Below are positions 13,728 through 31,800 of a stretch of DNA of 64,000 bases, in pieces. Numbering within the stretch: position 1 is the stretch's first letter; every line of letters starts with the position of its first letter. Origin of the DNA: Parapedobacter defluvii (GTDB taxonomy: Bacteria > Bacteroidota > Bacteroidia > Sphingobacteriales > Sphingobacteriaceae). Both the position numbers and the translations under genes were made by a program. The stretch spans positions 1 to 64,000 of the forward strand of contig NZ_BMIK01000009.1 in the NCBI RefSeq assembly GCF_014642075.1, given 5' to 3'. Below the pieces are notes generated by a model, which was given only the letters and a program-made list of their open reading frames with translations, ran no database searches and was not told the DNA's origin.

Positions 13728-13738
13728 GGTTGGCTATC

Positions 13739-14340: not shown

Positions 14341-14811
14341 ATGGAAACAGACACAACCATCCGGAAAACGCTGTTGGGCCTGATAAAGGCCAACGAGATA
14401 CTGAAGACCAAAGACATTGCGGTTGATGTAAATCAGGGCGTGGTCACGCTGAAGGGGTGCGTGCGGAATATGCGGGAGAAAAGAGAGGCCGAGCGGCTTG
14501 CGAAATATCTCCGGGAAGTGAGGGCTGTAGCGTTAGACCTACAGGTGGAATGTAAGGAGGCCGACGATGATACGCGCATCGCGGCTGAAATTGCGGAGGC
14601 ATTTGTGTGGGACCCACGACTGGCCGGAGAACGAATCAGCGTAGCGGTGGATAACGGCTGGGTGACATTGGATGGAGAAGTGGACGACTATTGCGGAAAA
14701 GTTGCCGCTTTCAATGCGGTCAATGACATCGAGCAGGTCAAAGGGATATCAAACCGGATTACCGTTAGGGTGCAAACAAAATATCAAAGACCACTACACG
14801 TAACAACATGA
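14341..14811 (+). CDS. Double BON-domain protein
   Basis: A 156-residue protein with two BON repeats (about 5-72 and 78-147): VNQGVVTLKGCVRNMREKREAERLAKYL and VDNGWVTLDGEVDDYCGKVAAFNAVNDIEQVKGISNRITV. There is no signal peptide. ATG 14341 is preferred to an upstream ATG at 14323. It is the first gene of a six-gene run (14341-18502) in which the next gene overlaps by 4 bases. Function is known only in general terms: lipid-binding stress proteins. Confidence 0.86.
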   Translation: METDTTIRKTLLGLIKANEILKTKDIAVDVNQGVVTLKGCVRNMREKREAERLAKYLREVRAVALDLQVECKEADDDTRIAAEIAEAFVWDPRLAGERISVAVDNGWVTLDGEVDDYCGKVAAFNAVNDIEQVKGISNRITVRVQTKYQRPLHVTT

Positions 14812-15278
14812 CAACTATACAGAAACAGATGCAACTGCCATCAAAAGAACAACTGTTGCGCGCCTGCATTGCAAAGCAGCGGGCGCTTATTGCAGATTTC
14901 AACCGAGGAATTAGGGAGCTTGATGGGGGCGGATCAACGGAATATGGTGCCGACCAACCGGGACTTGTCGAGGAAGTGGCCCTGCGGCATCGGCAGCTGA
15001 CAGACCAGCTGTTGTTTGCCCGCGAAGAGCTGAAGGTCCTGGAAGGAATGCACCTTTGGCTGGAAGAGCGCTATGACGAGGTGCAGTTGGGGAGCGTGGT
15101 GGCAACTGACAAGGGACTGTTTTACATTTCCGTCAGTATCGAGCGGTTTGAGGTGGATGGGACGCCTTTCATTGGCATTTCCCCCCAAAGCCCGCTGTAT
15201 AGGGCAATGGCCGGAAAAAAGAAAGGGGATTCATTTGCATTTGGCACAGAGGTGTATCAGATTCTGGAGATATGCTAA
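14808..15278 (+). CDS. GreA/GreB C-terminal-domain protein
   Basis: A 156-residue protein. The N-terminal part (about 15-95) is helical and likely coiled coil. The C-terminal part (about 100-156) matches the GreA/GreB FKBP-like domain, with IGISPQSPLYRAMAGKKKGDSFAFGTEVYQILEI. Gre factors and their paralogues bind the secondary channel of RNA polymerase. The usual acidic tip of GreA is not obvious here, so it may inhibit or tune polymerase rather than rescue it (inference). It overlaps the BON stop by 4 bases. Confidence 0.75.
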   Translation: MTTIQKQMQLPSKEQLLRACIAKQRALIADFNRGIRELDGGGSTEYGADQPGLVEEVALRHRQLTDQLLFAREELKVLEGMHLWLEERYDEVQLGSVVATDKGLFYISVSIERFEVDGTPFIGISPQSPLYRAMAGKKKGDSFAFGTEVYQILEIC

Positions 15279-15316
15279 ACGGGGAAATGCACGGGTAATA
15301 AATTGTATAAAAAGCC

Positions 15317-16357
15317 ATGGTCACGGTAAAAAGGGAAGGAGTGCTGCTCGAAAAGACCGTTTTGGGGTTTGAAAGCGCTGCGGTGTTCAACCCGGCAGTT
15401 TACCAGGACGGCGATGAGGTACATCTGTTTTACCGGGCGGTACGCAGGGGGAATTTTTCCACCATCGGCTATTGCCGTTTGCAGGGGGCATTACAGGTTG
15501 TGGAGCGTAGCAAAGTACCGCTGATCATTCCGCAGTATCCTTACGAACGCCAGGGAGTGGAAGACCCCCGTATTGTCAAAGTAGACAATAGCTATTACCT
15601 TTCATACACGGCTTACGACGGCATTACCGCGTTGGGTGCTTTGGCGGTTTCGGAAGACCTCCGGCACTTTGATAAAAAAGGAGTGATTGTACCCGAAGTA
15701 AACTTCAGGCGGTTTTCCGAATTGGTGCAAAGCGGTATGCGGTTGAATGAAAAGTATTTCAGGGAGCATCGCGAATACGCAGCCCATGGCTTATTGACGG
15801 CAGGGTTAAATTTATGGGATAAAAATGTTATTTTTTTTCCGGCCCGGATTGACGGAAACCTCGTATTTCTCCACCGGATCCGTCCGGGGATACAAATCGT
15901 CTCCGCCAGGAATATCCCTGACGAGCTGACAACCGATTTTTGGGAACGGTACCTGCTTAACTTTTCAGACCACATTGTCATGGAGCCTAAATATCCCCAT
16001 GAATCCAGCTACATCGGCGCCGGATGCCCGCCGTTATTGACGGATGAGGGCTGGTTGCTGATTTACCACGGTGTATACGATGGCCCCGAAGGGTATGTTT
16101 ACCATGCGTGCGCCGCCTTACTTGACAGGGACAATCCAAGCCGGGAAATTGCCCGCCTTCCCCGGCCGCTTTTGTCTCCCGAGGAAGACTGGGAAAAGCG
16201 GGGATATGTAAACAATGTTGTATTTCCTACAGGTACAGCCATATTCGGAGACCGGCTCTACATTTATTACGGTGCCGCAGACAGTCGGATAGCGGTGGCC
16301 TCGGTAAACCTGAAGGACCTGCTACAGGAATTGTCAGCGTCCAAATCGTTTTATTAA
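15317..16357 (+). CDS. GH130 family glycosidase / mannoside phosphorylase-like protein
   Basis: A 346-residue five-bladed beta-propeller protein of family GH130. Signatures are FNPAVYQDGDEVHLFYRAV, the hallmark GVEDPRIVKVDNSYYLSYTAYDG with the catalytic Asp, MEPKYPHESSYIGAGCPPL, GWLLIYHGV, and YINNV-like GYVNNVVFPTG. Known members phosphorolyse or hydrolyse beta-mannosides. There is no signal peptide, so it acts in the cytoplasm. Together with the next-door GT4 glycosyltransferase it probably makes or recycles an intracellular mannose-containing glycan during stress; this is inferred from context. Confidence 0.88.
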   Translation: MVTVKREGVLLEKTVLGFESAAVFNPAVYQDGDEVHLFYRAVRRGNFSTIGYCRLQGALQVVERSKVPLIIPQYPYERQGVEDPRIVKVDNSYYLSYTAYDGITALGALAVSEDLRHFDKKGVIVPEVNFRRFSELVQSGMRLNEKYFREHREYAAHGLLTAGLNLWDKNVIFFPARIDGNLVFLHRIRPGIQIVSARNIPDELTTDFWERYLLNFSDHIVMEPKYPHESSYIGAGCPPLLTDEGWLLIYHGVYDGPEGYVYHACAALLDRDNPSREIARLPRPLLSPEEDWEKRGYVNNVVFPTGTAIFGDRLYIYYGAADSRIAVASVNLKDLLQELSASKSFY

Positions 16358-16367
16358 TTTACTTATT

Positions 16368-17627
16368 ATGCCCGGTATTATGTCCAGCAAAATTGCATTT
16401 ATAACGTCCTATCCACCCCGTGAATGTGGAATAGCCACCTATAGCCATGATTTGATCGAAGCGCTGCGCACCTGTGCACAGGTGCCGTTCGACTCGCTTG
16501 TTTGCGCGTTAGAACCCCAGGGTAGGCGGTATTTTTACGATACGGAGGTCAAGTATACACTTTGTGCCGATTCACTTGAAGATTACCCGGATATGGCCAT
16601 GGAGATCAATGGAAACCGCGACATACGAGGCGTATTCATCCAGCATGAATTTGGCCTTTTCGGTGGCGAATATGGAGACCACCTGCTGTTATTGCTTTAC
16701 CACCTCAGTAAACCCGTGATCATTACCTTCCACACCGTACTGCCCGCTCCCGGTTACCCGCTTCTGAAAACGGTTCGTGCAATCAGTGAAGCCGTTGATA
16801 AAATCATCGTCATGACCAAGCATGCGGCCGATCTTTTGGTCGCTGACTATCAAATTCGGCCTGAAAAGATTGCCGTTATCCCGCATGGTATTCACAAAGT
16901 TCCAAAGGAGATGGACAAACAGCGGTTGCGGAGGCGGTACGGATTACCTGTGAGCGGCCGGATACTGGCAACATTTGGGCTTCTGAGCCGGGGCAAGAGT
17001 ATTGAAACGGCACTGCAGGCGCTGCCATCGGTAATCGACCGGTTTCCCGACACGCTGTACCTGGTCATCGGCGAAACGCATCCCGAAATTGTGAAACGTG
17101 AAGGCGAGGCTTACCGAAACCTGCTGAACTACCTGGTCAGTGAGCTCGGTCTTGACGGCCATGTCCGCTTTATAGACCGGTACCTGCCAACCCGTGAATT
17201 ACTTGAATACCTCGCCTTATCCGATATGTATCTGTTTACTTCCAAAGACCCGAACCAGGCGGTTAGCGGCACATTTGCCTATGCGCTCAGTTGCGGGTGT
17301 CCGGTGGTATCCACACCCATCCCGCATGCAAGGGAAGTGCTGACGGAAGATTTGGGCATCCTGGTAGGATTTGAGCAGCCCGGGCAATTTGCAGCAGCAA
17401 TCACCGAGCTGCTTGCGGCGCCTCAACGACTTCAGCAAATGCGTAGCAGGGCGTTGCAGGTCATGGCGTCATCCACGTGGGCTGAGGTAGCGAAAGCGCA
17501 CTACCGGATATTCTGTGAGTTGAATATGCTTCCGGCGGCAGAGGCAGTAACCGCAGTTCCTTCGGCACGTGAGAAATCCAGATCCCGCGAAACTACCAGA
17601 CAATCCCGGATTGGGGCAGCACTATGA
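16368..17627 (+). CDS. GT4-type glycosyltransferase (GT-B fold)
   Basis: A 419-residue protein. The N-terminal Rossmann domain starts SKIAFITSYPPRECGIATYSHDLIEAL, and HEFGLFGGEYGDHLLLLLYHL follows. The linker has VIPHGIHKVP, and the C-terminal domain has LATFGLLSRGKSIETALQAL and YLFTSKDPNQAVSGTFAYALSCGCPVVSTPIPHAREVL. The usual E-x7-E pair of GT4 enzymes is replaced around PNQAVSGTFAYA, so this belongs to a divergent branch. An in-frame ATG at 16380 (MSSKIAF) may be the true start. It follows the GH130 gene by 10 bases and overlaps the Usp gene by 4. Confidence 0.85.
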   Translation: MPGIMSSKIAFITSYPPRECGIATYSHDLIEALRTCAQVPFDSLVCALEPQGRRYFYDTEVKYTLCADSLEDYPDMAMEINGNRDIRGVFIQHEFGLFGGEYGDHLLLLLYHLSKPVIITFHTVLPAPGYPLLKTVRAISEAVDKIIVMTKHAADLLVADYQIRPEKIAVIPHGIHKVPKEMDKQRLRRRYGLPVSGRILATFGLLSRGKSIETALQALPSVIDRFPDTLYLVIGETHPEIVKREGEAYRNLLNYLVSELGLDGHVRFIDRYLPTRELLEYLALSDMYLFTSKDPNQAVSGTFAYALSCGCPVVSTPIPHAREVLTEDLGILVGFEQPGQFAAAITELLAAPQRLQQMRSRALQVMASSTWAEVAKAHYRIFCELNMLPAAEAVTAVPSAREKSRSRETTRQSRIGAAL

Positions 17628-18502
17628 AAACGATTTTGATGCTTACAGATTTCTCTCCACAGGCAGCGGCGGCCGCAAATTACGCGTTCAGGCTGGCAAC
17701 GCGGATCCATGCCAATGTTATGCTGTACCACGCGTTTACGATGCCCGATCCTTCGGACAAGTCATTCAAATCGTGGTCGGTGGAAGATTATTTTTTACGG
17801 AAGGAGAGTCTTGCTACCACGTTATCGGCATGGGCGGAGCGCCTAGTCAATTCTGCCCATCCATCTTCCGGAGATTTCACGCCAACTATCTCGTGTGCGA
17901 GTGAACTGGGCGAGTTAACCGATGCTGTACAAAGCCACATTTTTGCCAACCACGATGTTGTGTTGGCTGTGGTGGGGATACATGGACGGCACCGGGCAAC
18001 CCGTTTACTTTTCGAGAACAACGTGAATCGCATGCTCTCAATGGGGATGTGCCCGGTATTGGTGGTTCCCGAGGGCGCTGCATACGAGGATCCGTCTTAT
18101 GTATGTTTCGCAACGGACTTCAGCCGGTCGCACATGCGTGCGCTTCACTCATTGAGCAGCCTGTGCACCCATTTCGGCTCGGAAATTTCATTGGTATGGG
18201 TATCCAATAAGGTGAAGAAACCCGGAGACGTTCCCGATGCAGTTCGAGACTTCCTTACTGAAGTGTCAACAGCGGTTGGGTATCCGAAACTGTACTACCG
18301 GCCCGTCCGGAATCGGTTTGTGGTTAATGGACTGTACCGGTCAAGCCTGCACGGGCCCTGCGATCTGTTTGTCCTTGTGCACCGGGTGCGGAGCCGATGG
18401 TACAGGATAACTAAGGGAAGTACCACCCGGCAACTGATTCATCGGGTGGAGATGCCGCTGTTAGTTTTTCCCGAGGCGATGGCTTCCTATCCCGTATTTT
18501 GA
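17624..18502 (+). CDS. Universal stress protein, tandem Usp domains, degenerate nucleotide loop
   Basis: A 292-residue protein with two Usp folds: KTILMLTDFSPQAAAAANYAFRLA at the N-terminus and PSYVCFATDFSRSHMRALHSLSSL at about residue 163. The first loop reads VVGIHGRHRATRLLFENNVNRML, so the last glycine of the ATP-binding pattern is lost, and nucleotide binding is doubtful. It is the last gene of the operon starting at 14341 and overlaps the glycosyltransferase by 4 bases. Third Usp gene of the island. Confidence 0.86.
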   Translation: MKTILMLTDFSPQAAAAANYAFRLATRIHANVMLYHAFTMPDPSDKSFKSWSVEDYFLRKESLATTLSAWAERLVNSAHPSSGDFTPTISCASELGELTDAVQSHIFANHDVVLAVVGIHGRHRATRLLFENNVNRMLSMGMCPVLVVPEGAAYEDPSYVCFATDFSRSHMRALHSLSSLCTHFGSEISLVWVSNKVKKPGDVPDAVRDFLTEVSTAVGYPKLYYRPVRNRFVVNGLYRSSLHGPCDLFVLVHRVRSRWYRITKGSTTRQLIHRVEMPLLVFPEAMASYPVF

Positions 18503-18535
18503 CCTTGCCACGCCGATGTGCCCCTCGGTTGATGA

Positions 18536-18549
18536 TTGACTAATGTCAT
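18536..18549. promoter_or_regulatory. FNR-box-like palindrome, site 6
   Basis: TTGAC-TAAT-GTCAT lies 90 bases before the SDR gene. TACTTTTA at 18594-18601 resembles the -7 element, putting the site near -62 to -64. Confidence 0.6.
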
Positions 18550-18638
18550 CCTTCGACGTGACCAACGTTACCGCTATTTACGAAAGGGGTTCCTACTTTT
18601 AAAGCTATTAGGAAACAGGTTATTTTAATTCAAAAGTT

Positions 18639-19400
18639 ATGGCAAAGTTAGCAAACAAGGTCGCCATTATCACCGGAGGTTCCGGTGCGATAGGCTCTAC
18701 TACAGCAAAATTATTTTTGGAAGAAGGTGCAAAGGTGGTTCTCGTTGACATCAACGAGGAAGCGCTTGAAAAAGTTGCTTCTGAATTGGATAGTCCGGAT
18801 GTCAGCTATGTGGCGGCGGATGTTTCCAAGTCTAGTGATGTCCAGAAGTACGTCCAACATGCGGTAAGCAAGTTCGGAAAGGTTGACGTGTTCTTCAACA
18901 ATGCAGGAATCGAAGGCGTTGTAAAGCCCATCACCGAATATCCGGAAGATGCATTCGACAAATTGATCGGTGTGAATGTGAAAGGCGTCTGGTTGGGTAT
19001 TAAATATGTTTTACCCGAAATGAACGATGGCGGAAGTATTATCAATACGTCGTCCGTGGCCGGTCTGATGGGATTCGGATCGATGAGTGCCTATGTGACC
19101 AGCAAGCACGCGGTGATTGGTATTACGCGTACCATCGCACTGGAGGCGGCCCCGCGTGGTATCCGTGTCAATTCCATCCACCCAGCCCCGGTAGATAATC
19201 GCATGATGCGCTCCCTGGAAGAAGGTTTCGCGCCCGGTGAAGCAGCATCTGTCAAAAAAGGTTTCGAGGCCACCATTCCATTAGCTAGATACGCAACCAA
19301 TGACGATATCGCCAGAGGCGTGCTGTTTTTAGCTTCCGATGACAGCAAGTTCATCACCGGGATGAAACTGGTTGTGGATGGTGGGATGGCCATGGAATAG
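18639..19400 (+). CDS. Short-chain dehydrogenase/reductase (SDR)
   Basis: A 253-residue classical SDR: cofactor motif GGSGAIGS (about residues 14-20), an acidic residue after strand 2 (LVDINEEAL, suggesting NAD preference), NNAGIEG, catalytic Ser in INTSSVAG and the YVTSK Tyr-Lys pair, then DGGMAME at the end. The substrate is unknown; it resembles 3-oxoacyl-ACP or glucose-1-dehydrogenase-type members. It has its own promoter region with the sixth palindrome and is the last chromosomal gene before the tRNA and integrated element. Confidence 0.9.
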   Translation: MAKLANKVAIITGGSGAIGSTTAKLFLEEGAKVVLVDINEEALEKVASELDSPDVSYVAADVSKSSDVQKYVQHAVSKFGKVDVFFNNAGIEGVVKPITEYPEDAFDKLIGVNVKGVWLGIKYVLPEMNDGGSIINTSSVAGLMGFGSMSAYVTSKHAVIGITRTIALEAAPRGIRVNSIHPAPVDNRMMRSLEEGFAPGEAASVKKGFEATIPLARYATNDDIARGVLFLASDDSKFITGMKLVVDGGMAME

Positions 19401-19404: not shown

Positions 19405-21087
19405 TTAACCACCGCTTATAGTTGAGGTCGGAATGAAAAAATCTAAGTTTTCGCTTTTTTCAAACAGAAATGATATTTTTGCACCCACATTACCGGCCTC
19501 ATCGGGGTGTAGCGCAGCCCGGTAGCGCGCTTCGTTCGGGACGAAGAGGCCGTGGGTTCGAATCCCGCCACCCCGACCTGATGGGAAACCATCTAAAAAA
19601 TCAGAGGGCTGCTCCAAAAAGAGCAGCTCTTTTTCTTTGAGTATCTGTAGGTTATGTTCAAGCATAGGGTTAATCCACGGTGTTCTAAACACACCTTCGC
19701 TGAACGTGAGACCGTGTTTGAACACATCCCTCATAATCGAATGCTGGTCTGTGACAGGTACTTGCTCAAAAATGGTAGCCAGATTGACCAAATAGGGGAG
19801 CCGCAGTAGCTGTTGGTTGTATTCATCCTCGGAACCCTGCTCAAGATAGGCAATCTCTTCTTTCAGCCGTGCGCTTTCCATCTTGAATTTCCTGAAATAC
19901 TTTTTATAAGTAGATGCTTCAAGCTCCTCGTTTATCATACGTTCTTCCAGTCGGTCTATTTGTTTTTCGACGGCAGCCAACTGCCCGGCTTTGATAGCCA
20001 CCTGCTTTTTCATCAGGTCGAGGTCTTTACGCATCTTTTCTTCAACATCGGCAATGATGAAGTCAAGGTCTTCCTGCGCAAAGTCCAAATGCTTGACCAG
20101 TGCCTCATACTTGTCATGCAGCACCTTGCCTGAAATGTTGACATTGCTATGCCTAATGCAACGGTAGTACAAATAACGCTTTCTGCGTCCCTTGCTCCAT
20201 CCTGCCGTCATATTGCCCCCACAGCAGGGGCTTTTCAGCAATCCACGCAACGGAAATTCCTCTTTGGGCTGCGGTTGCTCGGCCCGTTTGTTGGCTTGGA
20301 GCATTTCCTGTACCAGCCAATATTGCGCTTCCGGAATAATCGGTTCATGGAGGCCGCTTACATGCCTTTCAGGGAGTTTCTCATTACCCGGCACCTTAAT
20401 CAGTCCGGCATAGACGCAATTGCCCAATATCCTTGCGATGCTGTCATTTCCGGTCAATGTAAGCCCCAGCTTTCTAACCTCTTTGTATATTTCATAATGT
20501 GGGATACCAGCCAGATAATCGCGGAAGATTTTCTGAACAATAAAGGATCTGTTTTCATCAATGACCAAAATACCCTTACCACTTGCATCACGGGCATTGA
20601 TATACCCAAAAGGTGCTACGCTAACATGCCTGCCCGATTCCTGCGCCTGCCGGATCCCCATCTGCGCCCGTTTGCGTATCGTGAAAAGCTCGTGATTGGC
20701 CATTAGGTATTTAAAAGCCCTTTGGATGAAGACGGCAGGGTCGGAGGGGTCAATGTCCAGCGGCTCGTTGGTGGCCAGTACGGTAAGCCCGAATTTCCGT
20801 TCCAATTGCTCAATTTTGAGCAAAGCCTCAGCCAGGTTCCTGCTAAAGCGGTCGTGGTCGAGCACTACCAAATATTTCACTTCCCGTTTATTTTGACGGA
20901 TGAATTTTTCCAATGCCATGTAATCCGGGCGGTCAAATGTGTAGCTACTTTCCCCGTCATCGACAAACACGGAGACAAGTTCCACCTTGTTCCGTTTACA
21001 ATATTCCCGGATGCTGCTTTGTTGGTAATCCAACGAGTAATTCGACTGGTCTCTCTTACTTATCCTGACGTAACCGATTGCTTTCAT
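19405..21087 (-). CDS. Large serine recombinase / integrase of the element
   Basis: A 560-codon frame. Resolvase domain (about 1-150): [18 protein letters not shown] with the catalytic Ser, and [16 protein letters not shown]. Recombinase domain (about 160-270). Zinc ribbon with SPCCGGNM and YYRCIRH, and a long coiled coil (about 335-420). Residues 504-528 are the antisense translation of the tRNA-Pro gene ([20 protein letters not shown]) and 529-560 come from chromosomal flank. So the native C-terminus is set by the integration junction and the true protein in the excised circle will differ. It catalyses insertion and excision of the element at this tRNA. Confidence 0.9.
19474..19481 (+). promoter_or_regulatory. 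tRNA-Pro promoter, -7 element TATTTTTG
   Basis: An exact TAnnTTTG match 22 bases before the tRNA 5' end. Confidence 0.65.
19503..19576 (+). tRNA. tRNA-Pro (anticodon CGG)
   Basis: A 74-nt cloverleaf: acceptor CGGGGTG/CACCCCG, D stem GCGC/GCGC with the CCGGTA loop, anticodon stem CTTCG/CGAAG with loop TTCGGGA (anticodon CGG), T arm GTGGG-TTCGAAT-CCCGC, discriminator A. CCA is not encoded (ACCT follows). The 3' half is the integration site of the element that follows. Confidence 0.95.
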
Positions 21088-21338: not shown

Positions 21339-24300
21339 TTAATTATCAATCATTTCCTTCTTGACATTTATTGCGACAGGGCCTTTGTAGTTAAAGGCTA
21401 AATTAAAACTAATCCTATCTCCGTTCTTTAAATCATCCCAAAATTCCTCATAATCGGATTCGTATCTATAGAAGTAAATCTGATCTGCCGTTGCGTCACG
21501 GGTGACAAATCCAAAATTATATTCGATTCGATTGATTGAGCCTTTATATTTAACAAGTTCTCCATTATTACGAACTTTAGCTCGCGGTTTGCTTTTCAAT
21601 TTCGGCTCAATACTAATTTTATTTAAACTTTTAAAAATTGTATTTGATTCTGATATTTCGTTCAATAAATATAGAGTTCTTGCGAACCAAAATTGCGCTT
21701 GGTACCTGTTATCTCCTTTAGTAAAGGAACGGTTTAGATAGTGCTTGATATTAACAAGTTTGTCTCCATCGGTTCGTATCAGATTCAATGCGTATTGAAA
21801 ATTAATATCCTTATCCCCGGGAATTAGTTTTAAGGTATCTTCCATTATTGATTTCGCCTTCGGGAAATCCTTATTTGAATTATAAAGCATCACTAATCGT
21901 AAGCATAAAAACGGACTTCTCTTATTTAACTCGTAGGCTTTTTCCAATAATCGTATAGCTTCAGGTTTGTTGTTTAATATTTTATTAAATTGAGATTCTG
22001 CTTCAAGTATAAATTCCTGCTGCGGAAAGGTTTGCTTAGAAAACGAAAGCACTTTTTCAGTGTCTTTAATGAGACGTTCAAATGAAGGCGAATCACCGTC
22101 TTCAATAAGCATTTTAAGCTTGAAAAGATGAATTTTTAGCAGAGTATGATAAGGGTGTGGCCTATCTTTAGATTTTGCAACTAGTTTTTTTGAAACGACT
22201 TCTGCTTCGTTCAAATATTTATTGATTTCAACTTTATATGTCGATTTTTCTGCTCTTGTTAATGCCATTTCGGCGAATGAATGCTGAATTACACTGTCAT
22301 TTGGAGCCAATTTTAGTGCCTCGGTTAACAATTCGGAGGCTTTATTAAAATTTCCTCCTGGCGCGTTCATTTCAAATATTGCTTCTTGTTGTAATAACTT
22401 TGCATCAAGAGGATTCGTTTCCTTAGCAACCTTATACAAGGTTCTAACCATCTCAGGATCTTTAAAGTTTTCCATCAAATTCTTAGCTTTCATAATAGAG
22501 AGGAAAGCAATACGGTCGTTCTCAAAATCAACATCAAGGCAGGATAATATTCTTATATACTCGTCATATCTGTGTTGTGGCTCCGATAATACTACTTCGT
22601 AAATTATTTCAGCAATTTGTTTATGTCGAGTTAAGTAGATGTAATCATTAATACGATAGTCCCACCTATCAAAAACGATAAATTCTAGTGGTTTAAACAA
22701 ATTTTGTTTAAAGTATGAGAAAGGAATTGAGTGAACTCTTGAAATCAGACCTGCACGAGCCTCTGTACCCAAACGATGTAGGATGCTTACTGTCAAATAC
22801 AAAGAACGGGCGACCGGATTGGATATTGAATTGTATTCATCTTGAACTATTTCCGAAAATGGTTTACCCATAGTACTTTCATATAGCGCTACTAAAAGTT
22901 CCCTGCCAGCTTTATACGAAAGTGCTTCTATTCTTTCCTCTGTTGATTTGTCTTTTAAATATCCTAGTGAGTCGTATTTTTCAAGTTTGACTAATAGATT
23001 ATTAATTTCATTATCGGTTAGGTACCTTAGTTCATATTCGTTATCTGAATACTTTTTTAATTCATCGCAGTCCGCGTTCCAGACGTTAACTCTTTCGGCC
23101 CCGATTAAAGTTATTGGCAATTTATCTTTTTTTGCAAGCTCGATAAAATCAATTATATGATCCTGATTGTCATAGATATTGTCAATAAAGATGTAAATTC
23201 TGTCCTTTAAATAATTACATAATTCACTGATTGGTAAAATATCAATTATACTATTGGCATTGTAAAACAAACATATTCTATCAAATAAAACTGAGGCCTC
23301 CCATGCTACTCTTTTCAATAGTACCGATTTACCCGATCCTGCATACCCCTTTATTAAAAAAAACTCAAAGCGGTTCTCTCTTATATTGTCATCGTTAAGA
23401 AAAATTTCAGACAGTACAATGTCTGTTAATCCCCTTCTGACATCTAGGTTTTTTAGAATAGGATCCCAGTTCTCAAAATATCCCTTATAAAATTCTTTAG
23501 GATCGGTGTTAACCTCACTCAGAGATTTGTGAACGTATTGAAAATCATAATTTAAAGAATTTAACAACGTTTCTGACGGCTTCAGTTCATTAGTTGATAT
23601 TATAGCTTTTTCAAAAATTTTATGAACCATGAATTCATCACCTCTTATTAGTGCTAACTTTCTCTTTTCTTCACCTATTTCCACCTTTAATTTATCCATG
23701 AAATCGCTAAAAGTCATTTTAATCGCGGTAATCTTTTTATTTTCCCATAATCTAGCTTCTTGATCTTTAATGTTTGGTCCTACCATATAAGACCTGACCC
23801 TAGAATCTTTTAGTTCGTCCAATAACAACAATATCTTTCTAATATCAGGATCTGCAAAACTAAATCCAACAAACAAAAAAGCATATTCGTATGCAAGTGA
23901 TTCTATTCGAGAATACAGCCTATCCCGGTTTTTCTTGTGATTTATATATTGGTCTGCGGTCAATATTAAAGGGGCGTTTAGGTCGTTAATATCAGTTATG
24001 CAGCCATGAATCTTATAAAACGGTAAATCCTTTGGTGATTTCACTTTATCTCTGACCCGCTCTCCATTTTTAACAAATTTAGCCAAGCTTTGTACTGGAT
24101 CAACTTGAGAATATGCTTTTTCAATGATTAAATCATAGTTTGTTGTTATTATCGATTTCCAAACAAATCTCGGAATCTCCAAATGATGATCATTTGGAGA
24201 AAATGGCTCAAATAATTCATATATATAGCTCTGAACGGAGAATAGATCATATTCAGATATTGCCAGTTCAGACACATATTGTAATGACTGATCAGAAAAC

Positions 24301-24461
24301 TCATCAGTCAAAAATTTGTCAGAAATAAGTTGCGCAAGTTGGTATCCATTTGGAGGATTAATGCCTTTAGGGTGTTTGGCTCCGTATGAAGCCCCCGCTC
24401 CTAAAAACAATACTACGTTCCCATCTTTAATTTGATCTATAAGTGGCTTTGGTATCTCCAT
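21339..24461 (-). CDS. SIR2-STAND-TPR protein with C-terminal cold-shock-like domain (Avs5-like defence)
   Basis: A 1040-residue protein. The SIR2 NADase-type domain (about 1-260) shows VVLFLGAGAS (17-25), TTNYD (106-110), the active-site-type KIHG (His152) and FVGFSFADPD. The P-loop domain has GYAGSGKS (372-379) and Walker B RIYIFIDNIYD. Helical TPR-like repeats (about 640-950) follow. The last about 65 residues fit a cold-shock fold: GSINRIEYNFGFVTRD, QIYFYR, LKNGDRISF and KGPVAINV. SIR2-STAND proteins of the AVAST group sense phage proteins and deplete NAD+; that role is inferred. AT-rich, unlike the neighbouring mob genes, and alone in its transcript. The start is immediately at the SIR2 fold. 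Confidence 0.85.
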   Translation of the reverse strand: MEIPKPLIDQIKDGNVVLFLGAGASYGAKHPKGINPPNGYQLAQLISDKFLTDEFSDQSLQYVSELAISEYDLFSVQSYIYELFEPFSPNDHHLEIPRFVWKSIITTNYDLIIEKAYSQVDPVQSLAKFVKNGERVRDKVKSPKDLPFYKIHGCITDINDLNAPLILTADQYINHKKNRDRLYSRIESLAYEYAFLFVGFSFADPDIRKILLLLDELKDSRVRSYMVGPNIKDQEARLWENKKITAIKMTFSDFMDKLKVEIGEEKRKLALIRGDEFMVHKIFEKAIISTNELKPSETLLNSLNYDFQYVHKSLSEVNTDPKEFYKGYFENWDPILKNLDVRRGLTDIVLSEIFLNDDNIRENRFEFFLIKGYAGSGKSVLLKRVAWEASVLFDRICLFYNANSIIDILPISELCNYLKDRIYIFIDNIYDNQDHIIDFIELAKKDKLPITLIGAERVNVWNADCDELKKYSDNEYELRYLTDNEINNLLVKLEKYDSLGYLKDKSTEERIEALSYKAGRELLVALYESTMGKPFSEIVQDEYNSISNPVARSLYLTVSILHRLGTEARAGLISRVHSIPFSYFKQNLFKPLEFIVFDRWDYRINDYIYLTRHKQIAEIIYEVVLSEPQHRYDEYIRILSCLDVDFENDRIAFLSIMKAKNLMENFKDPEMVRTLYKVAKETNPLDAKLLQQEAIFEMNAPGGNFNKASELLTEALKLAPNDSVIQHSFAEMALTRAEKSTYKVEINKYLNEAEVVSKKLVAKSKDRPHPYHTLLKIHLFKLKMLIEDGDSPSFERLIKDTEKVLSFSKQTFPQQEFILEAESQFNKILNNKPEAIRLLEKAYELNKRSPFLCLRLVMLYNSNKDFPKAKSIMEDTLKLIPGDKDINFQYALNLIRTDGDKLVNIKHYLNRSFTKGDNRYQAQFWFARTLYLLNEISESNTIFKSLNKISIEPKLKSKPRAKVRNNGELVKYKGSINRIEYNFGFVTRDATADQIYFYRYESDYEEFWDDLKNGDRISFNLAFNYKGPVAINVKKEMIDN

Positions 24462-24969: not shown

Positions 24970-25377
24970 ATGGCAAGGAAAAAGCTCACCAATCCCGATG
25001 ACCTGCTCAACAGGCCGCTCGTGATCCGGGTCAACGAAGCCACCTACGCACGGCTTGAAAACATCCGGAAGGAAAGCGACTGCCACTGCATCGGCGAAGT
25101 GGCCCGGCGCATCCTATCCCGGCAGCGCATCAACCTGTTCCACCACGACGTATCCCTCGACCGCCCGATGGAGGAACTCACCCGCATCCGCAGGGAACTC
25201 AAAGCCATCGGCATCAACATCAACCAGCAGACCCACCGCTTCCACATCAGCGACAGCGAATCAGAACGGGCATTCTACGTCAACCGCACAGCCATACTTT
25301 ATAAGGATGTGGGCGACAAGGTGGAACGACTGTTAGTTATGGTATCACAGCTTGCCGAGAAATGGTTACGAAAATAA
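24970..25377 (+). CDS. mobA: Relaxosome accessory protein, MobA/MobC-like
   Basis: A 135-residue basic protein with an N-terminal ribbon-helix-helix-like segment (PLVIRVNEATYARLENIRKESDCHCIGEVARRILS, about 16-50) and a C-terminal helical part with LTRIRRELKAIGININQQTHRF, typical of accessory proteins that help the relaxase bind oriT. It overlaps the relaxase gene by 16 bases. The symbol follows Bacteroides element usage. Confidence 0.8.
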   Translation: MARKKLTNPDDLLNRPLVIRVNEATYARLENIRKESDCHCIGEVARRILSRQRINLFHHDVSLDRPMEELTRIRRELKAIGININQQTHRFHISDSESERAFYVNRTAILYKDVGDKVERLLVMVSQLAEKWLRK

Positions 25378-26696
25378 TCAGCGGCAAGAGCATCCGCGGC
25401 CTGCTCAACTACAACGAGCACAAGGTCACCGAGGGGGATGCCGAACTCATCATGGCCAGCCTGTTCGGCACCGAACTGGACAAACTCAGTTTCAACGCCA
25501 AACTGGAACGTTTCGAGAACCTCACCAAGCTCAGTCCGCAGGTCAGGACAAACGCCCTGCATATCATGCTCAACTTCGACACGAGCGAGAAACTCGACCA
25601 TACCACCCTACAAAAAATAGCGGACACCTATATGGGCAAAATCGGCCTCGGTGACCAGCCCTACCTGGTCTACCTGCACAAGGACGTATCCCACCAGCAC
25701 CTGCACATCGTCACCACCACCATCCAGCCGGACGGCAAGCCCATCAACATCCACAATATCGGCAAGGCGCTATCCGAACCCGCCCGCAAGGAAATCGAAC
25801 GGAAGTTCAGGCTCGTACCTGCCGAAAGCAAGCAACGGGAACGGGTGGATGCCATCAAGGCCATCGACCCCGAAAAGGCGCAATACGGCAGGACCCCCAC
25901 AAAACGCGCCATCAGCAACGTGGTCAGTGCCGTGGTACGCAGCTACAAATTCACCAGCCTTGCCGAACTGAATGCCGTGCTCAGCCAATACAACGTAGTG
26001 GCCGACCGGGGCAAGGAGGACACCGATATGTACAAGCACCGTGGGTTGGTCTACTCCATCATCGACGCGGAGGGCAACCGCATCGGCATCCCGTTCAAGG
26101 CCAGTGTGCTGCCCTATAAACCCACGCTGGACCACCTCGAAAAGAAATTCGAGCGCAACGCCGAAAAACGGAATCTCCACAAAGACGACTTCAAGCAGCG
26201 CATCGACAAGGTGATGGACGGCTACACCCAATTCACCAAAGCCACCTTCATCTCCGAATTGGCCAAGCAGGGCATCCATGCCGTATTCCGGCAGAATGAG
26301 CAAGGCCGGATCTACGGCATCACCTACGTGGACAATAGTCACAAGACGGTATTCAACGGCAGCGACCTCGGCAAAGTGTACACCGCAAAGGCCATCACCG
26401 AAAAATTGGCCCATGCGGATATGGCCGTTACCACCAAGCAAGGACAACAGCGGGGCAAGGAAACGGACAGCAAAAAACAAGGGCAACGCCAACAGCAAAA
26501 GACTTACCTGCGTCCGGCAGTCACGCCGACCAACTACCTGCAAACGGTATTAGCCAAACACCAGCCCCCGAAGCAGAAAGTGGATGATGGCAAAGGTCTG
26601 CTCGACATAGCCCTTGCCAAGACCGCACCCGATTACGCCCCGGCCATCCCGAAACGAAAGAAGAAACGACGCAAAGGCTTCCGCTTTTCAGGATAG
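25362..26696 (+). CDS. mobB: Relaxase / mobilisation nuclease MobB
   Basis: A 444-residue relaxase (PF03432-type). The N-terminal nuclease core holds KIISGKSIRGLLNYNE (3-18), HIMLNFDTSEKL, and the metal-binding histidine motif HKDVSHQHLHIVTTTI (about 105-120). The C-terminal half is basic and helical. It nicks oriT and pilots the single strand in conjugation. GTG or ATG choices near 25362 fit; I use ATG 25362 within the mobA end. Operon with mobA and the coupling protein. Confidence 0.9.
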   Translation: MVTKIISGKSIRGLLNYNEHKVTEGDAELIMASLFGTELDKLSFNAKLERFENLTKLSPQVRTNALHIMLNFDTSEKLDHTTLQKIADTYMGKIGLGDQPYLVYLHKDVSHQHLHIVTTTIQPDGKPINIHNIGKALSEPARKEIERKFRLVPAESKQRERVDAIKAIDPEKAQYGRTPTKRAISNVVSAVVRSYKFTSLAELNAVLSQYNVVADRGKEDTDMYKHRGLVYSIIDAEGNRIGIPFKASVLPYKPTLDHLEKKFERNAEKRNLHKDDFKQRIDKVMDGYTQFTKATFISELAKQGIHAVFRQNEQGRIYGITYVDNSHKTVFNGSDLGKVYTAKAITEKLAHADMAVTTKQGQQRGKETDSKKQGQRQQQKTYLRPAVTPTNYLQTVLAKHQPPKQKVDDGKGLLDIALAKTAPDYAPAIPKRKKKRRKGFRFSG

Positions 26697-26723
26697 CGAT
26701 AATGCTGAATCTCAATACTCATG

Positions 26724-26741
26724 TCTCACATCTCATATCTA
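26724..26741 (+). repeat. Shared 18-nt leader motif, copy 1
   Basis: TCTCACATCTCATATCTA just upstream of the coupling-protein ATG; an identical copy lies before traF at 58612-58629. Confidence 0.8.
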
Positions 26742-26748
26742 CAATAAA

Positions 26749-28794
26749 ATGAACACCGGAGAAGACATCCAATCCCTACGTAAGATAGCCGACCTCAGCA
26801 GGCTGATTAGTCTCTCCATACTGGGTATCCATATTTACCTCACCTGCTACCTCGCTTTCAGGGGTTGGGGTTGGACAGCCGAAATTACAGATAGTCTCAT
26901 GGCCAATCTGGTCACTACCGGCTTATTTGACGGTACGACCAAGCCCAAGTTAGCCGCACTGGTTTTCCTTGCCATTTCGCTCATGGGTGTCAAGGGCCGC
27001 AAGGACGAGAAAATCGGCTGGCGCGGCATCGCCACCTATATCACCAGTGGCGTGTCACTCTATTTCGCCAGTGCCCTCGTGCTTTACCTGCCCGCTTCGC
27101 CAAGTGCCCTTGCCGCCGGATACATCGGCCTCACGGGAACGGGCTATTTGCTCATGCTCATTGGCGGCACCCACCTGTCACGCCTCATCAAATTCAGCCT
27201 GCAAAACGACATCTTCAATGCGGATAACGAAACATTCCCGCAGGAGGAACGCTTACTCGAAAATGAGTATTCCGTCAACCTGCCTGCGAAGTACAGGCTG
27301 AAAGACCGGATACGGGAAAGCTGGATTAATTTCATCAACCCGTTCCGTGGCCTACTGGTCATCGGCACGCCCGGTGCCGGAAAGTCCTATTTCGTCATCC
27401 GGCACATCATCGACCAGCACATCCGCAAGGGGTTCGCCTTGTTCGTCTATGACTTCAAGTATGACGACCTCACCAGGATTGCCTACAACAAACTGCTCCG
27501 GTACCGCAGGAATTACCCCGTACCCCCGAAATTCTACGTCATCAACTTCGACGACCTCAGCCGTACACACCGTTGCAACCCCCTCGATCCCCATAGTATG
27601 GATGACATCACCGATGCCACCGAAGCGTCACGGACAATCATGCTGGGCCTCAACCGCGAATGGATAAAGAAACAGGGCGACTTCTTCGTGGAATCGCCCA
27701 TCAACTTCCTCACCGCCATCATTTGGTATCTGCGGCGGTACGGGGACGGCATCTATTGCACATTGCCCCATGTCATCGAACTCATGCAGGCCGACTACGA
27801 CCCACTCTTTGCCATCCTTAGCCAGCAGGACGAGATCAAGACACTCATCAATCCGTTCATCTCCGCATTCCAGAACAACGCCAAGGAGCAACTGGAGGGG
27901 CAGATAGCCAGCGCCAAAATCGGGTTGGCACGGCTGTCATCCCCCCAACTCTATTACGTGCTGTCCGGCAACGACTTCACACTGGACGTGAACAATCCTG
28001 ACCATCCTAAGATTGTCTGCCTCGGCAACAACCCGCAGAAGTTGCAGATATATGGGGCCGTGCTCTCCTTATATATATCACGTATGATCAAATTGGTCAA
28101 CCGCAAGGGGCAACAGAAAAGCAGCCTCGTGTTCGACGAGTTCCCCACCATCTATTTCAACAACATCGACAGCCTCATCGCCACGGCCCGCTCCAACAAG
28201 GTGGCTACCACCATCGCCGTGCAGGATTTCAGCCAACTAAAAAAAGATTACGGTGCCGAGCAGGCCGACGTGATTACGGGCATCGTGGGCAACATCATCA
28301 GTGGGCAGGTCACGGGCGATACGGCGAAGACGCTTTCGGAAACGTTCGGCAAGATCATGCAGGACAGGACGAGCACCACGCTCACCAGTTCCGACACCAC
28401 CTTCACCAAGTCCACGCAACTGGATTACGCCATCCCCGCATCCAAGATTGCCACACTTTCTTCCGGCACGTTCGTGGGCATGGTGGCCGACAACCCCGAG
28501 GAAAAAATTGCACTCAAGGTATTCCACAGCGAAGTACAGAACGACCATGCTGCCATCGCCTGTGAGGAAGCTGCCTACCAACCTATCCCCAGGATCGCTA
28601 CCGTCACCGCCGAGGACATCCGTGAGAATTACTTGAAAATCAAACGCGAAGTTAGGGAATTGATGATGGAGGAGTTAGAACGGATAGAAATGGAATGGCC
28701 AGAAAAACCAAAACAACACGAGGCCGGAAATGCTAACGAATTGACGGAGCCCCCCGCGGGTGATCCGTCCGAAGGAAAGTCTATATCCATGTGA
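26749..28794 (+). CDS. Type IV coupling protein (TraG/VirD4 family, MobC of Bacteroides elements)
   Basis: A 681-residue ATPase from ATG 26749 (earlier in-frame starts lie inside the relaxase gene). The N-terminus has several membrane helices (about 20-140), then the motor domain with Walker A GTPGAGKSYFVIRH, FVYDFKYDDLTRI, Walker B-type LVFDEFPTIYF and TTIAVQDFSQLKKDYG. It links the relaxase-DNA complex to the mating channel. It follows the relaxase by 52 bases; the gap contains the leader motif. Confidence 0.9.
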   Translation: MNTGEDIQSLRKIADLSRLISLSILGIHIYLTCYLAFRGWGWTAEITDSLMANLVTTGLFDGTTKPKLAALVFLAISLMGVKGRKDEKIGWRGIATYITSGVSLYFASALVLYLPASPSALAAGYIGLTGTGYLLMLIGGTHLSRLIKFSLQNDIFNADNETFPQEERLLENEYSVNLPAKYRLKDRIRESWINFINPFRGLLVIGTPGAGKSYFVIRHIIDQHIRKGFALFVYDFKYDDLTRIAYNKLLRYRRNYPVPPKFYVINFDDLSRTHRCNPLDPHSMDDITDATEASRTIMLGLNREWIKKQGDFFVESPINFLTAIIWYLRRYGDGIYCTLPHVIELMQADYDPLFAILSQQDEIKTLINPFISAFQNNAKEQLEGQIASAKIGLARLSSPQLYYVLSGNDFTLDVNNPDHPKIVCLGNNPQKLQIYGAVLSLYISRMIKLVNRKGQQKSSLVFDEFPTIYFNNIDSLIATARSNKVATTIAVQDFSQLKKDYGAEQADVITGIVGNIISGQVTGDTAKTLSETFGKIMQDRTSTTLTSSDTTFTKSTQLDYAIPASKIATLSSGTFVGMVADNPEEKIALKVFHSEVQNDHAAIACEEAAYQPIPRIATVTAEDIRENYLKIKREVRELMMEELERIEMEWPEKPKQHEAGNANELTEPPAGDPSEGKSISM

Positions 28795-28863: not shown

Positions 28864-31800
28864 CTAAATGTCCTCCAAAATTTGTTCGGCCTTACTTTTG
28901 AAACGGTAATCCATTAAGATCTTATCAAACATTTTTAAAAGCTTGGCTCGGTACTTTTTGCTTTTTTTGTCTTCATCATCTAACGCATTGTAAGCGCCGA
29001 CTACAAATTTTGTGGCGTCGTCCTCCGATCTCAGCAAATAGTCATCTTCCTCCTCTTGACTGCTCTTAGTGATTGCCAAATCGAACAAATCTACGCAACT
29101 AAACGGGGCTTCCTTAGTCTTTTCTGTGAGATACTGTACGAAATATGAAGAAATTTTGAAACTCTTCGACGAGATGTATTTTTCGAGGAAGGATTTAATG
29201 TCCAAAATTTTTATTTCGTCCATGTGCAAAAATTCCAACCTAAAACGTCTCTGAAGACTCTTATTTGACTCGCTTAGGAGAAAGGTTAGTAGTTCGAAAA
29301 CTTTGGTCTTAGAATTTTCATCAAAGTAAAAACCTTCAAATGCTACATGTACTGACCAATCATGGCTTTTTTCATTGGATTGCAGCAATTCAAAGAAGGT
29401 TTCTTTTGCCCCATTTTGTTCTTTCAGCCAGGAAAAGAATAATATGGAAACCAGCCATCGCATATCGTCATCGCCTAATTTATCAAATGATGCTACTAAC
29501 TTTCTTAATGTCGGAATCAGGCGTACAAAGTCATGATTGACAAGATATTGCAGTGACCATAATGACGCTGCCAGAACATCGACATCTTGTTCGTTTTCCA
29601 GAATCCCTACGAAAAGATCGTATGCCCTTTCGGGATTTAAATGCATTAAAAAGGCATATTTAGATAAAACAATTGCCCTAACATAATTTTCTGAACTATT
29701 CAGTGCTTTTGCCAATGTAGAAAATACCGTATCTTCATGCTCGTTGCTATCAATGAACAACAAGGAGTAGGCCGCGGAACCCGCGATACTATTCAGTCCC
29801 CACGTTACTAATCCATTAATCGTTGTCTTTTTTTCCTTTACTTCTTCTAAAACAATTTTTGATTGTCTGTCGTCCTTGAATTCCGTTTGTTGAACAAGAA
29901 AATTGATAATGTCACTGTCGTAGACTTTGCTTTCTATCAAGTGTCTGGCAATCAAACCGCAAAGCGACATGTTAGCTTTTGATAGAACCAATCCATCTGT
30001 TAGTAGCCTTTTCAGGTATTTCAAAACAATCGCCGTATCTGCTTTTCCCTCGCCCAAGCCCCAAACCCCATGTACTTTATAATCTTGATGTACACGTTCA
30101 TCAAGCATGATCGTGTCTATTAAACCGATTTTATTATCAGGATTGTTTTTGACCGCTTCATGGAATGCGCGTGCATTTTCATCTAGGCCTCCTTTTAGGA
30201 AGTGTGTTTCCCGACGGTTATTATCATACTTCAGAAATGACTTGATCCATTGTTCGTCACTCAGATATTGATATTTGTCTCGCTGGATAGGCGTACCCAC
30301 AATACCTGCGATACCACCATTGCTTGGTCTGGCATCTTTGGTCTTTTTATACTTTCGTTCCAGTTCCTGGAACGTTCTCTTCAGTTGTAAGTCCTCTTCA
30401 ATATACCTATTCGGCAATCGAAGGAGCATAAAATACTTCGTCAAGCCCCAACGTAGATGATAGAGTGGTTTGTCTCTTAGTTTATTCTGAGGGTATACGA
30501 ACAATTCATCTTTGATTTTTAGGCGATTAATGATCCCAATGGACTTGTTTTTATCCGTTTCACTAAAATAGCAAAAGCCTTTTTCGAAAAGCTCCCGGAA
30601 CTCAAAATTAAGCCTGCCATGACTCTTTAACAACGAGTTATTTTCAAGGTGTCGAAGTAGAAAGTGTATCTCATTCGGGTAGAGGGCTTCGTTTGTTTTC
30701 AATGCAAAAACCAATAAGCGGAGTCTACTCTCAGATTTTGTGGTGTTGTAACGATGCCAAAAATCGGCAAACACCTCACGGTGTTGTCCTGCAACTTTCC
30801 TTAAACAAACAGCTAATAACTTGTATAAAAACTCGTTCCCCTTTAAATGGTCCTCGTCACCCAAGTAGATATTGGCGTATTGAAACTCACCATCGATTCC
30901 CGCTTTCCTGTATCTTTTATCGTTGATTTTTTTCTCGACGATTTCTAACAAAATTGGGAATAAGAGCTCTGGGATTTTTTTCGCAATAATTTTCAGTAGC
31001 TTTTCCTCTTGATAGTCCCGATTTTTTGACTTGATAAAATATGTGTCGGACAGCAAATCATCCTCAATTTTTGAAAGCGCGTATTTTGGGTCGAAGTTTG
31101 CGATGGTCTCCAGCACATGGTGATATCCGTAAGCGTCGGTTTCCTTAAAATCCGTACATCTTTCAAATAACCTGTATGCATTGCTGTTATTCCAGTTTTT
31201 GAGCGAAAACAAGCACCATCTTACGAAACCTTCATCCTGAACGCCGGATAGAAATCCGAGAACCTTGTCTGGTGTTTCGACAAGCTGACTTTTGACAAAG
31301 ACGGAACAAGTGTGCCTACGGTAATTCTCAACATCGACACTACTTCGGTTTCTGACGAGAAAGGACAATAAGGAGATTTTCGGTTTGGGCTTGGGCGTGA
31401 CAGTACTTGGCGGCGTCCTTAGCGAATCCAATAGTCCATTAGTTAATGCCGCATCAAACCACCGCGTGCTTAAAGCATGTTCATAGAAAACTATCTGCCA
31501 ATGAATGGACCGCTTTAGCTGCTCCACCAAGAATTTTATTTCTTCTTCACTGGGATCGTCTATTGAGGCCAAAAAAGAAATGAGAAGGTGCTTTATGTGG
31601 TAAAGGATACTGGTCTCCTCAAGTAGCTTATGTACTTCTTCAAGAAATTGTTTCGGTTTGTAATCTCGAAGGTAATTCAAAATCATTTTTAGAGCAGGGC
31701 GTATTAACAACGATTGGCGATGGCTTTTTATATACCATTTTATGCTCTTTCCTTCTTCAACAAATTTCTTTGCAAAGACAAAATCAAAAAATGTTTGGTG

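What the first reader, a model, noticed from the sequence alone, without database searches (positions are those of the whole stretch)
21339..24461. SIR2-STAND-TPR protein ending in a cold-shock fold
The C-terminal 65 residues keep RNP1-like NFGFV, RNP2-like IYFYR and KGPVAINV. A nucleic-acid-binding cold-shock domain attached to an NAD-depleting STAND sensor is an unusual design and suggests recognition of RNA or single-stranded DNA, in contrast to the protein sensing of known Avs proteins.
Basis: partly seen in the sequence, partly recalled or inferred. Interest (0 to 1): 0.72.

Follow-up and report, generated by a model that had tools for sequence, protein, structure and literature searches.

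The report
NAD-cutting immune receptor with cold-shock tail
A mobile element in this bacterium carries what looks like a one-protein immune receptor, built like the bacterial defence protein Avs5 and the human antiviral protein SAMD9, and it does end in a cold-shock-type fold that may help it sense RNA or single-stranded DNA, although that sensing has not been shown.

Summary
By single sequence the CSD is weak (Pfam 22.8 bits, cut-off 27), but a 29-row family profile matches solved CSDs down to E 2.5e-11, and the tail modelled alone is a five-strand barrel (pLDDT 89.4) whose first 23 Foldseek matches are CSDs. Two divergent clades (22 and 11 proteins aligned) both keep it. Five full-length members lie in viral contigs, and one in E. 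coli sits between psu and int of a P4-like satellite, a known anti-phage hotspot. SIR2 catalytic residues are invariant (33/33).

The design has a precedent. The nearest solved structures are EfAvs5 (matches residues 1-847) and human SAMD9 (matches from first to last domain). A SIR2-STAND-TPR-OB order with a cold-shock-like OB fold was described for the SAMD9 family in 2017. Nucleic-acid sensing is plausible (three RNP-type aromatic sites kept in 30-31 of 33) but unproven: two other aromatic sites are lost, and the TPRs could sense a protein. Verdict: new variant of a known kind, a bacterial SAMD9/Avs5-type receptor.

The parts
21339..24461 (-). SIR2-nSTAND5-TPR-CSD protein, 1040 aa (P0001)
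23676..24461 (-). SIR2 NADase-type domain, residues 1-262; G21xG23, TTNYD 106-110 with N108, H152-G153
   Evidence: Pfam SIR2_2 E 2.3e-24; N108 and H152 33 of 33; VIA Z 24.4 to ThsA
22542..23501 (-). nSTAND5 NTPase with following helical region, residues 321-640; Walker A GYAGSGKS 372-379, Walker B D427
   Evidence: Pfam nSTAND_NTPase5 E 1.3e-23; VIA Z 17.9 to CED-4 over 311-665
21591..22541 (-). TPR helical array, residues 641-957, inferred sensor
   Evidence: Pfam TPR_2, TPR_14, TPR_19; helices 647-957 in the model
21354..21554 (-). C-terminal cold-shock domain, residues 970-1036; RNP1-like NFGFV 982-986, RNP2-like IYFYR 995-999, KGPVAINV 1026-1033
19405..21087 (-). large serine recombinase of the carrier element (context)
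   Evidence: Pfam Resolvase 1.4e-22, Recombinase 3e-8; best NCBIfam CcrB 88.6 bits, far under its cut-off 900
25362..26696 (+). MobA/VirD2-type relaxase of the carrier element (context)
   Evidence: Pfam Relaxase 9.8e-26
26614..28794 (+). T4SS coupling-type protein with YWFCY domain (context)
   Evidence: Pfam YWFCY 7.6e-53, T4SS-DNA_transf 2.3e-20

Best explanation
A single-gene, mobile-element-borne antiviral STAND receptor of the Avs5/SAMD9 type. In the resting cell it is held closed. A phage-derived trigger engages the C-terminal TPR-CSD module, the nSTAND5 NTPase exchanges nucleotide and oligomerises, and the clustered SIR2 domains hydrolyse NAD+, stopping the infected cell. The CSD is most likely a working part of the sensor module that contacts RNA or single-stranded DNA, either phage nucleic acid itself or a nucleoprotein read jointly with the TPRs. 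Shown here: domain order, fold of each part as predicted, invariant SIR2 catalytic residues, canonical P-loop in the window protein and its clade, conservation of the CSD across two deep clades, and carriage of members in P4-like and other mobile elements. Inferred: anti-phage function, NAD+ hydrolysis, oligomerisation, and nucleic-acid contact by the CSD.
For: Domains: SIR2_2, nSTAND5 and TPR_19 match 33 of 33 aligned members at E<=0.1. Catalytic N108 and H152 33 of 33; Walker B D427 33 of 33; Walker A K378 22 of 22 in clade A. Structure: Foldseek rank 1 EfAvs5 (E 1.8e-25), ranks 2-6 human SAMD9 (best 2.3e-20), then AVAST5 filament and DSR2; SIR2 domain VIA Z about 20-24 to ThsA, KomC and DSR2. 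CSD; the clade A tail model finds 10 of 11 clade B tails over the inclusion threshold, the clade B model 20 of 22 clade A tails (E-values for those small sets), hhalign 97.8%. RNP-type sites aromatic (F, Y, W or H) in 31 (983), 30 (985) and 30 (996) of 33. Context: E. coli WP_097725118.1 lies between psu and integrase of a P4-like satellite, the hotspot tested in PMC9122126 (passages); neighbours scanned in the viral contigs include Psu-type proteins (L131, L130), integrases (L131-L133), DNA primases (L130, L133) and a portal protein (L134). Base composition 33.7% G+C against 50.8% and 52.1% for the two outer stretches of the window. In clade A, TPR and CSD are the least conserved of the four domains (mean pairwise identity 0.317 and 0.295 against 0.406 SIR2 and 0.413 STAND), as a sensor would be.
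Against: No functional data on any member. The W8-type site is aromatic in 3 of 33 and the F30-type site in 2 of 33, so the full Csp binding platform is not kept; CSD net charge runs from -4 to +5 in clade A (-1 in P0001) and 0 to +6 in clade B, which decides nothing. The best sequence matches are Unr/CSDE1 CSDs, a protein in which, as I recall, some CSDs do not bind RNA. In clade B the TPR part is as conserved as SIR2 (0.464 against 0.462), which does not fit a fast-changing TPR sensor. The tail model finds no CSD in the 22 related SIR2-nSTAND5 proteins of group C (660-877 aa), so such receptors exist without it. Model pTM is 0.56 and rmsd over the SAMD9 match is 31.6 A; VIA gives only first and last aligned residues and covers 1-803 broadly, so OB-to-OB pairing with SAMD9 was not shown residue by residue.
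Confidence: 0.55

Rival explanations
1. Protein-sensing Avs5-like receptor: the TPRs bind a phage protein, and the CSD is a structural cap, a protein-protein surface or a clasp that keeps the receptor closed, with no nucleic-acid role.
For: Avs5 senses the phage protein JADA and its C-terminal repeats are reported as essential (PMC12931631, passages). W8- and F30-type sites lost. A family-specific aromatic at 1023 (33 of 33) sits where the six other CSDs of the genome have a non-aromatic residue.
Against: Three RNP-type aromatic sites stay aromatic in 30-31 of 33 although CSD identity between clades averages only 0.20.
Confidence: 0.3
2. The CSD anchors the receptor to host RNA, ribosomes or nucleoid and senses collapse of host transcription or translation (a guard), not phage nucleic acid.
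For: Csp-type domains bind host RNA broadly (recalled). SAMD9, of the same order, acts on tRNA through a separate N-terminal domain (PMC13245274, passages).
Against: No direct evidence; nothing seen in the loci points to a host partner.
Confidence: 0.1
3. The CSD is the toxic output domain, like the CSD protein that NCBIfam names the effector of retron Se72.
For: NCBIfam retron_eff_Se72 is the best CSD-type NCBIfam match (25 bits, E 1.4e-5).
Against: Far under that model's cut-off of 82; the protein has its own SIR2 domain with invariant catalytic residues.
Confidence: 0.03

Closest known systems
SAMD9 family (human SAMD9/SAMD9L and bacterial relatives; Mekhedov et al. 2017, PMC5445408)
   Same: Order SIR2-like, STAND P-loop, TPR, C-terminal OB fold most like cold-shock domains; SAMD9 chain 390-1588 aligns to model 1-1035 (first and last aligned residues).
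   Different: No AlbA_2/tRNase or SAM domain before the SIR2 domain; P0001 has a canonical Walker A lysine and intact SIR2 catalytic residues, whereas SAMD9 is reported with glycine for that lysine; no SAMD9 chain listed in the PDB sequence searches.
Avs5 / AVAST type 5 (EfAvs5 9jap, AVAST5 filament 9nc9; PMC12931631)
   Same: SIR2 effector, STAND NTPase, C-terminal helical repeats; best fold match.
   Different: EfAvs5 match ends at model residue 847; PaAvs5 is reported as nSTAND3, P0001 matches nSTAND5; 'OB-fold' does not occur in the main text of that paper.
ThsA, DSR2, KomC SIR2 NADases
   Same: SIR2 domain fold and catalytic residues (VIA Z about 20-24).
   Different: Different sensing modules.
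Cold-shock proteins, Y-box and Unr/CSDE1 CSDs
   Same: Five-strand OB fold, RNP1/RNP2-type aromatics.
   Different: W8- and F30-type aromatics lost; fused to a STAND receptor.
CoCoNuT systems (PMC11090510, passages)
   Same: CSD-like OB folds fused to P-loop NTPases in defence, read there as a sign of RNA targeting.
   Different: McrB-type GTPases and nucleases, not SIR2-STAND.

Membership tests
SAMD9 family | SIR2-like, then STAND P-loop NTPase, then TPR | tested here: met
SAMD9 family | C-terminal OB fold most similar to cold-shock domains | tested here: met
SAMD9 family | Walker A lysine replaced by glycine (GGT/S) | tested here: not met
   P0001 has GSGKS; clade A K in 22 of 22; clade B lacks K in 11 of 11 but has T, V, I or M, not G
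SAMD9 family | AlbA_2 domain before SIR2 (lost in some members per the paper) | tested here: not met
   SIR2 fold starts at residue 1 and the open frame is 1045 aa, so there is no room for another N-terminal domain
SAMD9 family | significant sequence similarity to SAMD9 | tested here: inconclusive
   PDB sequence searches with A3, A6 and A5 list no SAMD9 chain (best 60 of 197 shown; 23 of 23; best 60 of 64)
Avs5 (AVAST type 5) | SIR2 effector plus STAND NTPase plus C-terminal repeats | tested here: met
Avs5 (AVAST type 5) | nSTAND3 (PF20720) NTPase as reported for PaAvs5 | tested here: inconclusive
   P0001 matches nSTAND5, no nSTAND3 at E<=1; 13 of 33 relatives match nSTAND3 at E<=0.1
Avs5 (AVAST type 5) | match to an Avs5 model of PADLOC | tested here: inconclusive
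   no family of that name among the matches of P0001 at E<=0.1 or of nine relatives at E<=0.001; that the library holds such a model was not checked
Avs5 (AVAST type 5) | activation by a phage protein, NAD+ hydrolysis | not testable with these tools
   needs experiment
Cold-shock domain (PF00313) | five-strand OB fold of CSD type | tested here: met
Cold-shock domain (PF00313) | curated score cut-off 27 bits | tested here: inconclusive
   22.8 bits in the whole-protein scan, 28 in the six-frame search
Cold-shock domain (PF00313) | full aromatic nucleic-acid platform (W8, F15, F17, F27, H29, F30 of CspB; numbering recalled) | tested here: not met
   F15, F17 and F27 sites kept, H29 site Y in P0001; W8 and F30 sites are R in P0001 and non-aromatic in 30 and 31 of 33
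Retron Se72 effector (NF038236) | score over 82 bits | tested here: not met
   25 bits

The most novel reading that the evidence does not exclude
A nucleic-acid-sensing bacterial STAND NADase: the TPR-CSD tail reads phage RNA or ssDNA and fires the SIR2 domain. The family would be a living bacterial form of the SAMD9 core with both enzymes intact, clade B (P-loop lysine lost) standing between it and SAMD9, and it would give human SAMD9's OB domain a testable sensor role.
Probability: 0.3. Interest if true: 0.85.

Novelty: new variant of a known kind. Interest (0 to 1): 0.58.

Why it matters
What bacterial STAND receptors with extra non-repeat modules sense is open, and the OB domain of human SAMD9, an antiviral and disease gene, has a predicted RNA-binding role but no assigned function in the passages read here. 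A compact one-gene bacterial protein with the same order, intact catalytic sites and a member on an E. coli P4-like satellite makes both questions testable in a laboratory E. coli strain. It also offers bacterial relatives in which the P-loop lysine is present (clade A) or lost (clade B), a loss reported as odd in SAMD9.

Tried and rejected
Rejected: chance or artefact for the CSD. Rejected: the CSD as a recent one-off fusion (both clades keep it). Rejected: the CSD as the toxic effector (third rival).

Led nowhere or against: tblastn of P0001 in the phage collection gave no match; the Klebsiella homologue gave no megablast match among 5,426 E. coli genomes; the single-protein viral-contig scan found none, the alignment scan 69 loci, of which 5 are full-length. 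SAMD9 is not listed in PDB sequence searches, nor among the 50 rows of the VIA list for the isolated tail (limited to Foldseek's candidates, so no evidence of absence). A search of 296 Bacteroidota genomes with the tail profile gave hits in 220; apart from this family (G000, G138) the listed rows lie in frames of at most 359 aa, mostly small Csp-like proteins (list truncated), so no other large receptor with this tail was seen there. Of ten neighbour genes scanned, chosen from L130-L134 and L059, the one beside L059 matched a ribonucleotide reductase family, not defence; neighbours of the other genome contigs members were not annotated. Only a quick tree was finished: clades A and B each come out as one group (SH-aLRT 99 and 100), the deep order and CSD gain or loss are unresolved. 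No second copy of the tRNA-Pro end was found in the window (longest exact repeat 14 bp).

Literature: searches listed no paper on a bacterial SIR2-STAND-TPR-CSD defence protein beyond PMC5445408 and the remark in PMC9122126 that hotspot STAND proteins can carry SIR2; I saw listings, which were capped (for example 10 of 55, 15 of 24, 12 of 595, 8 of 160), and most subscription papers are not held. One search for 9JAP found none; the papers behind 9jap, 9nc9 and 9zjr were not read.

Rows left out of alignment A3 (33 rows): L050, L073, L074 (run off their contig) and L014-L016 (partial fetches); L077 (753 aa); duplicates of aligned proteins (L001, L046, L047, L051, L058, L063); near-relatives of aligned rows (L011/L061, L133); disrupted L013, L049/L055, L065; more distant L004, L135 and group C; and the plasmid records that were not fetched (6 of 59 fetched).
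Full report
What is there. The ORF at window 21339-24461 (minus) encodes 1040 aa. Pfam places SIR2_2 at 103-247, nSTAND_NTPase5 at 323-468, TPR motifs at 703-722 and 834-891, and a cold-shock domain at 978-1035. The own genome (66 contigs, 5.8 Mb) holds one copy. Its G+C is 33.7% against 50.8% (1-19400) and 52.1% (36500-64000) for the outer stretches of the window, as expected of foreign cargo. It lies between a large serine recombinase (19405-21087) and relaxase and coupling-protein genes on the other strand, which I read as a mobilisable element; its ends were not found.

The tail is a cold-shock domain. By single sequence the signal is modest (22.8 bits, cut-off 27; 28 bits in the six-frame search). 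A profile of 29 family tails meets solved CSDs at E down to 2.5e-11, and 48 of the 51 PDB sequences with E<=0.1 are cold-shock, Unr/CSDE1 or Y-box proteins; the other three are a 'nucleic acid binding protein', a ribosome hibernation factor and a CSD-bearing Cmr6. AlphaFold2 on the tail alone gives five strands with pLDDT 89.4 and pTM 0.78; Foldseek ranks 1-23 are CSDs; VIA gives Z 10.4 to Unr and YBX1 CSDs at 1.9 A over 70-72 residues. The full-length model (pLDDT 86.4, pTM 0.56) has five strands at 971-979, 983-988, 994-998, 1016-1024 and 1027-1035.

It belongs to a family. Full-length relatives occur in Bacteroidota (3 of 395 sampled genomes, the own one included), on plasmids (59 records matched, 14 over at least 80% of the query), in genome contigs (81 relatives found, 80 kept, many matching only the SIR2 part) and in viral contigs (69 loci, 5 full-length). 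Thirty-three were aligned: clade A, 22 proteins (P0001 and 21 that are 30-67% identical to it), and clade B, 11 proteins (20-23%) from Nitrospirota, Planctomycetota, Chloroflexota, Bacillota, Actinomycetota and others. SIR2_2, nSTAND5 and TPR_19 match 33 of 33; Pfam CSD matches 14 of 33 at E<=0.1. The clade B tails are homologous to the clade A tails: hhalign 97.8%, E 1.2e-12; the clade A model finds 10 of 11 clade B tails over the inclusion threshold, the clade B model 20 of 22 clade A tails. The 22 related SIR2-nSTAND5 proteins of group C (660-877 aa) give no match to the tail model at E<=1; Pfam was run on 6 of them and found SIR2_2 and nSTAND5 without CSD. One distant viral-contig protein, L135, has a weak match to the tail model (E 0.0015).

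Catalysis. N108 and H152 of the SIR2 site, G21 and G23, and Walker B D427 are invariant in 33 of 33. Walker A lysine is present in 22 of 22 clade A proteins and absent in 11 of 11 clade B proteins, where T, V, I or M replaces it.

Does the CSD look able to bind nucleic acid? Aligned with the six other CSDs of the same genome, the sites of CspB F15, F17 and F27 (numbering recalled) are F983, F985 and Y996; they are F, Y, W or H in 31, 30 and 30 of 33 (27, 30 and 29 if histidine is not counted). The H29-type site is aromatic in 14, the F30-type site in 2 and the W8-type site in 3 of 33. Residue 1023 is F or Y in 33 of 33, where the six other CSDs have a non-aromatic residue. So a reduced aromatic platform is kept and the classical one is not. 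Charge does not decide. This is compatible with nucleic-acid binding and does not prove it.

What it works like. Foldseek ranks EfAvs5 (9jap) first at E 1.8e-25, human SAMD9 second to sixth, then the AVAST5 filament and DSR2. VIA aligns EfAvs5 over model 1-847 (Z 22.2, 761 residues) and SAMD9 over 1-1035 against chain 390-1588 (Z 16.6, 818 residues); rmsd is 23-32 A, so the domain order agrees and the relative placement does not, and only first and last aligned residues are given. PaAvs5 hydrolyses NAD+ after sensing the phage protein JADA, and its repeats are reported as essential (PMC12931631, passages). That paper notes likeness of PaAvs5 to SAMD9 over query residues 3-818. The present family carries the order to the end of SAMD9, tail included.

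Surroundings elsewhere. In E. coli N18-04097 a copy 98.5% identical in DNA to L131 is the only annotated gene between psu and the integrase of a P4-like satellite; it is in 1 of 5,426 E. coli genomes at that similarity. Of ten neighbour genes scanned, L131 has Psu and an integrase, L132 an integrase, L133 an integrase and a DNA primase, L130 a Psu-like protein and a DNA primase, L134 a portal protein and an origin-nicking replication family; calling these P4- or P2-type is my reading. The tenth, beside L059, matched a ribonucleotide reductase family. The psu-int site is a tested hotspot of anti-phage systems, and the authors mention STAND proteins there with SIR2 in place of TIR (PMC9122126, passages). 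On the Vibrio, Psychrobacter and Acinetobacter plasmids the gene lies near integrases or recombinases and VapBC/Abi, restriction/Fic or zeta/PIN genes; on the Klebsiella plasmid near a recombinase and insertion sequences.

Mechanism and confidence. A one-gene STAND receptor that depletes NAD+ is well supported by anatomy and context, though no member was tested. That the CSD takes part in sensing through nucleic acid is my best reading at about even odds; a protein-sensing receptor with a structural CSD is the main rival. In clade A the TPR and CSD parts are the least conserved of the four domains, as expected of the sensing half; in clade B only the CSD is, while the TPR part is as conserved as the SIR2 domain.

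Novelty. The domain order was described for SAMD9 and some bacteria in 2017, with an RNA-binding prediction. What is added here is a widespread bacterial family with an intact NADase site and, in clade A, an intact P-loop, carried among others by satellites and plasmids, that links Avs5 to the SAMD9 order, and a clade in which the P-loop lysine is lost as in SAMD9 though to other residues.

Noticed in passing
window 28864-33516 (-): A second large candidate defence protein (1550 aa) in the same region: LmuA-like N-terminus (PADLOC E 1.8e-6), PDC-M54A match (2.7e-14), weak nSTAND5 match (26.5 bits, under cut-off), weak HEAT match near the C-terminus; 38.9% G+C.
   Followed up: partly
window 19503-19578 (+): A tRNA-Pro gene lies inside the 3' end of the recombinase ORF (19405-21087, -), suggesting that the element inserted at this tRNA; no second copy of the tRNA end found in the window.
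   Followed up: partly
clade B proteins (L066-L072, L075, L076, L078, L079): Walker A lysine missing in 11 of 11 with the rest of the P-loop region kept, reminiscent of the degenerate P-loop reported for SAMD9.
   Followed up: partly
clade B tails (L067, L068, L069, L072, L079): C-P-G-S-K replaces the VFVHxS stretch of Csps in 5 of 11 clade B tails, with variants in the others; meaning unknown.
   Followed up: no
L013, L049/L055, L065: Copies interrupted by a stop or frame change (Klebsiella plasmid, Mucilaginibacter, Halomonas); intact relatives exist.
   Followed up: no
L010:7980-11114 (+): An intact homologue on a conjugative Klebsiella plasmid on which qnrS1 and a LAP beta-lactamase are predicted nearby.
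   Followed up: no
L017: A protein with an nSTAND5 match over the cut-off whose N-terminus looks, by eye only, like an Mrr-type nuclease instead of SIR2, suggesting effector swapping.
   Followed up: no
L135:5998-9318 (+): A very divergent viral-contig SIR2-nSTAND5-TPR protein (1106 aa) with a possible CSD-like tail (E 0.0015).
   Followed up: no
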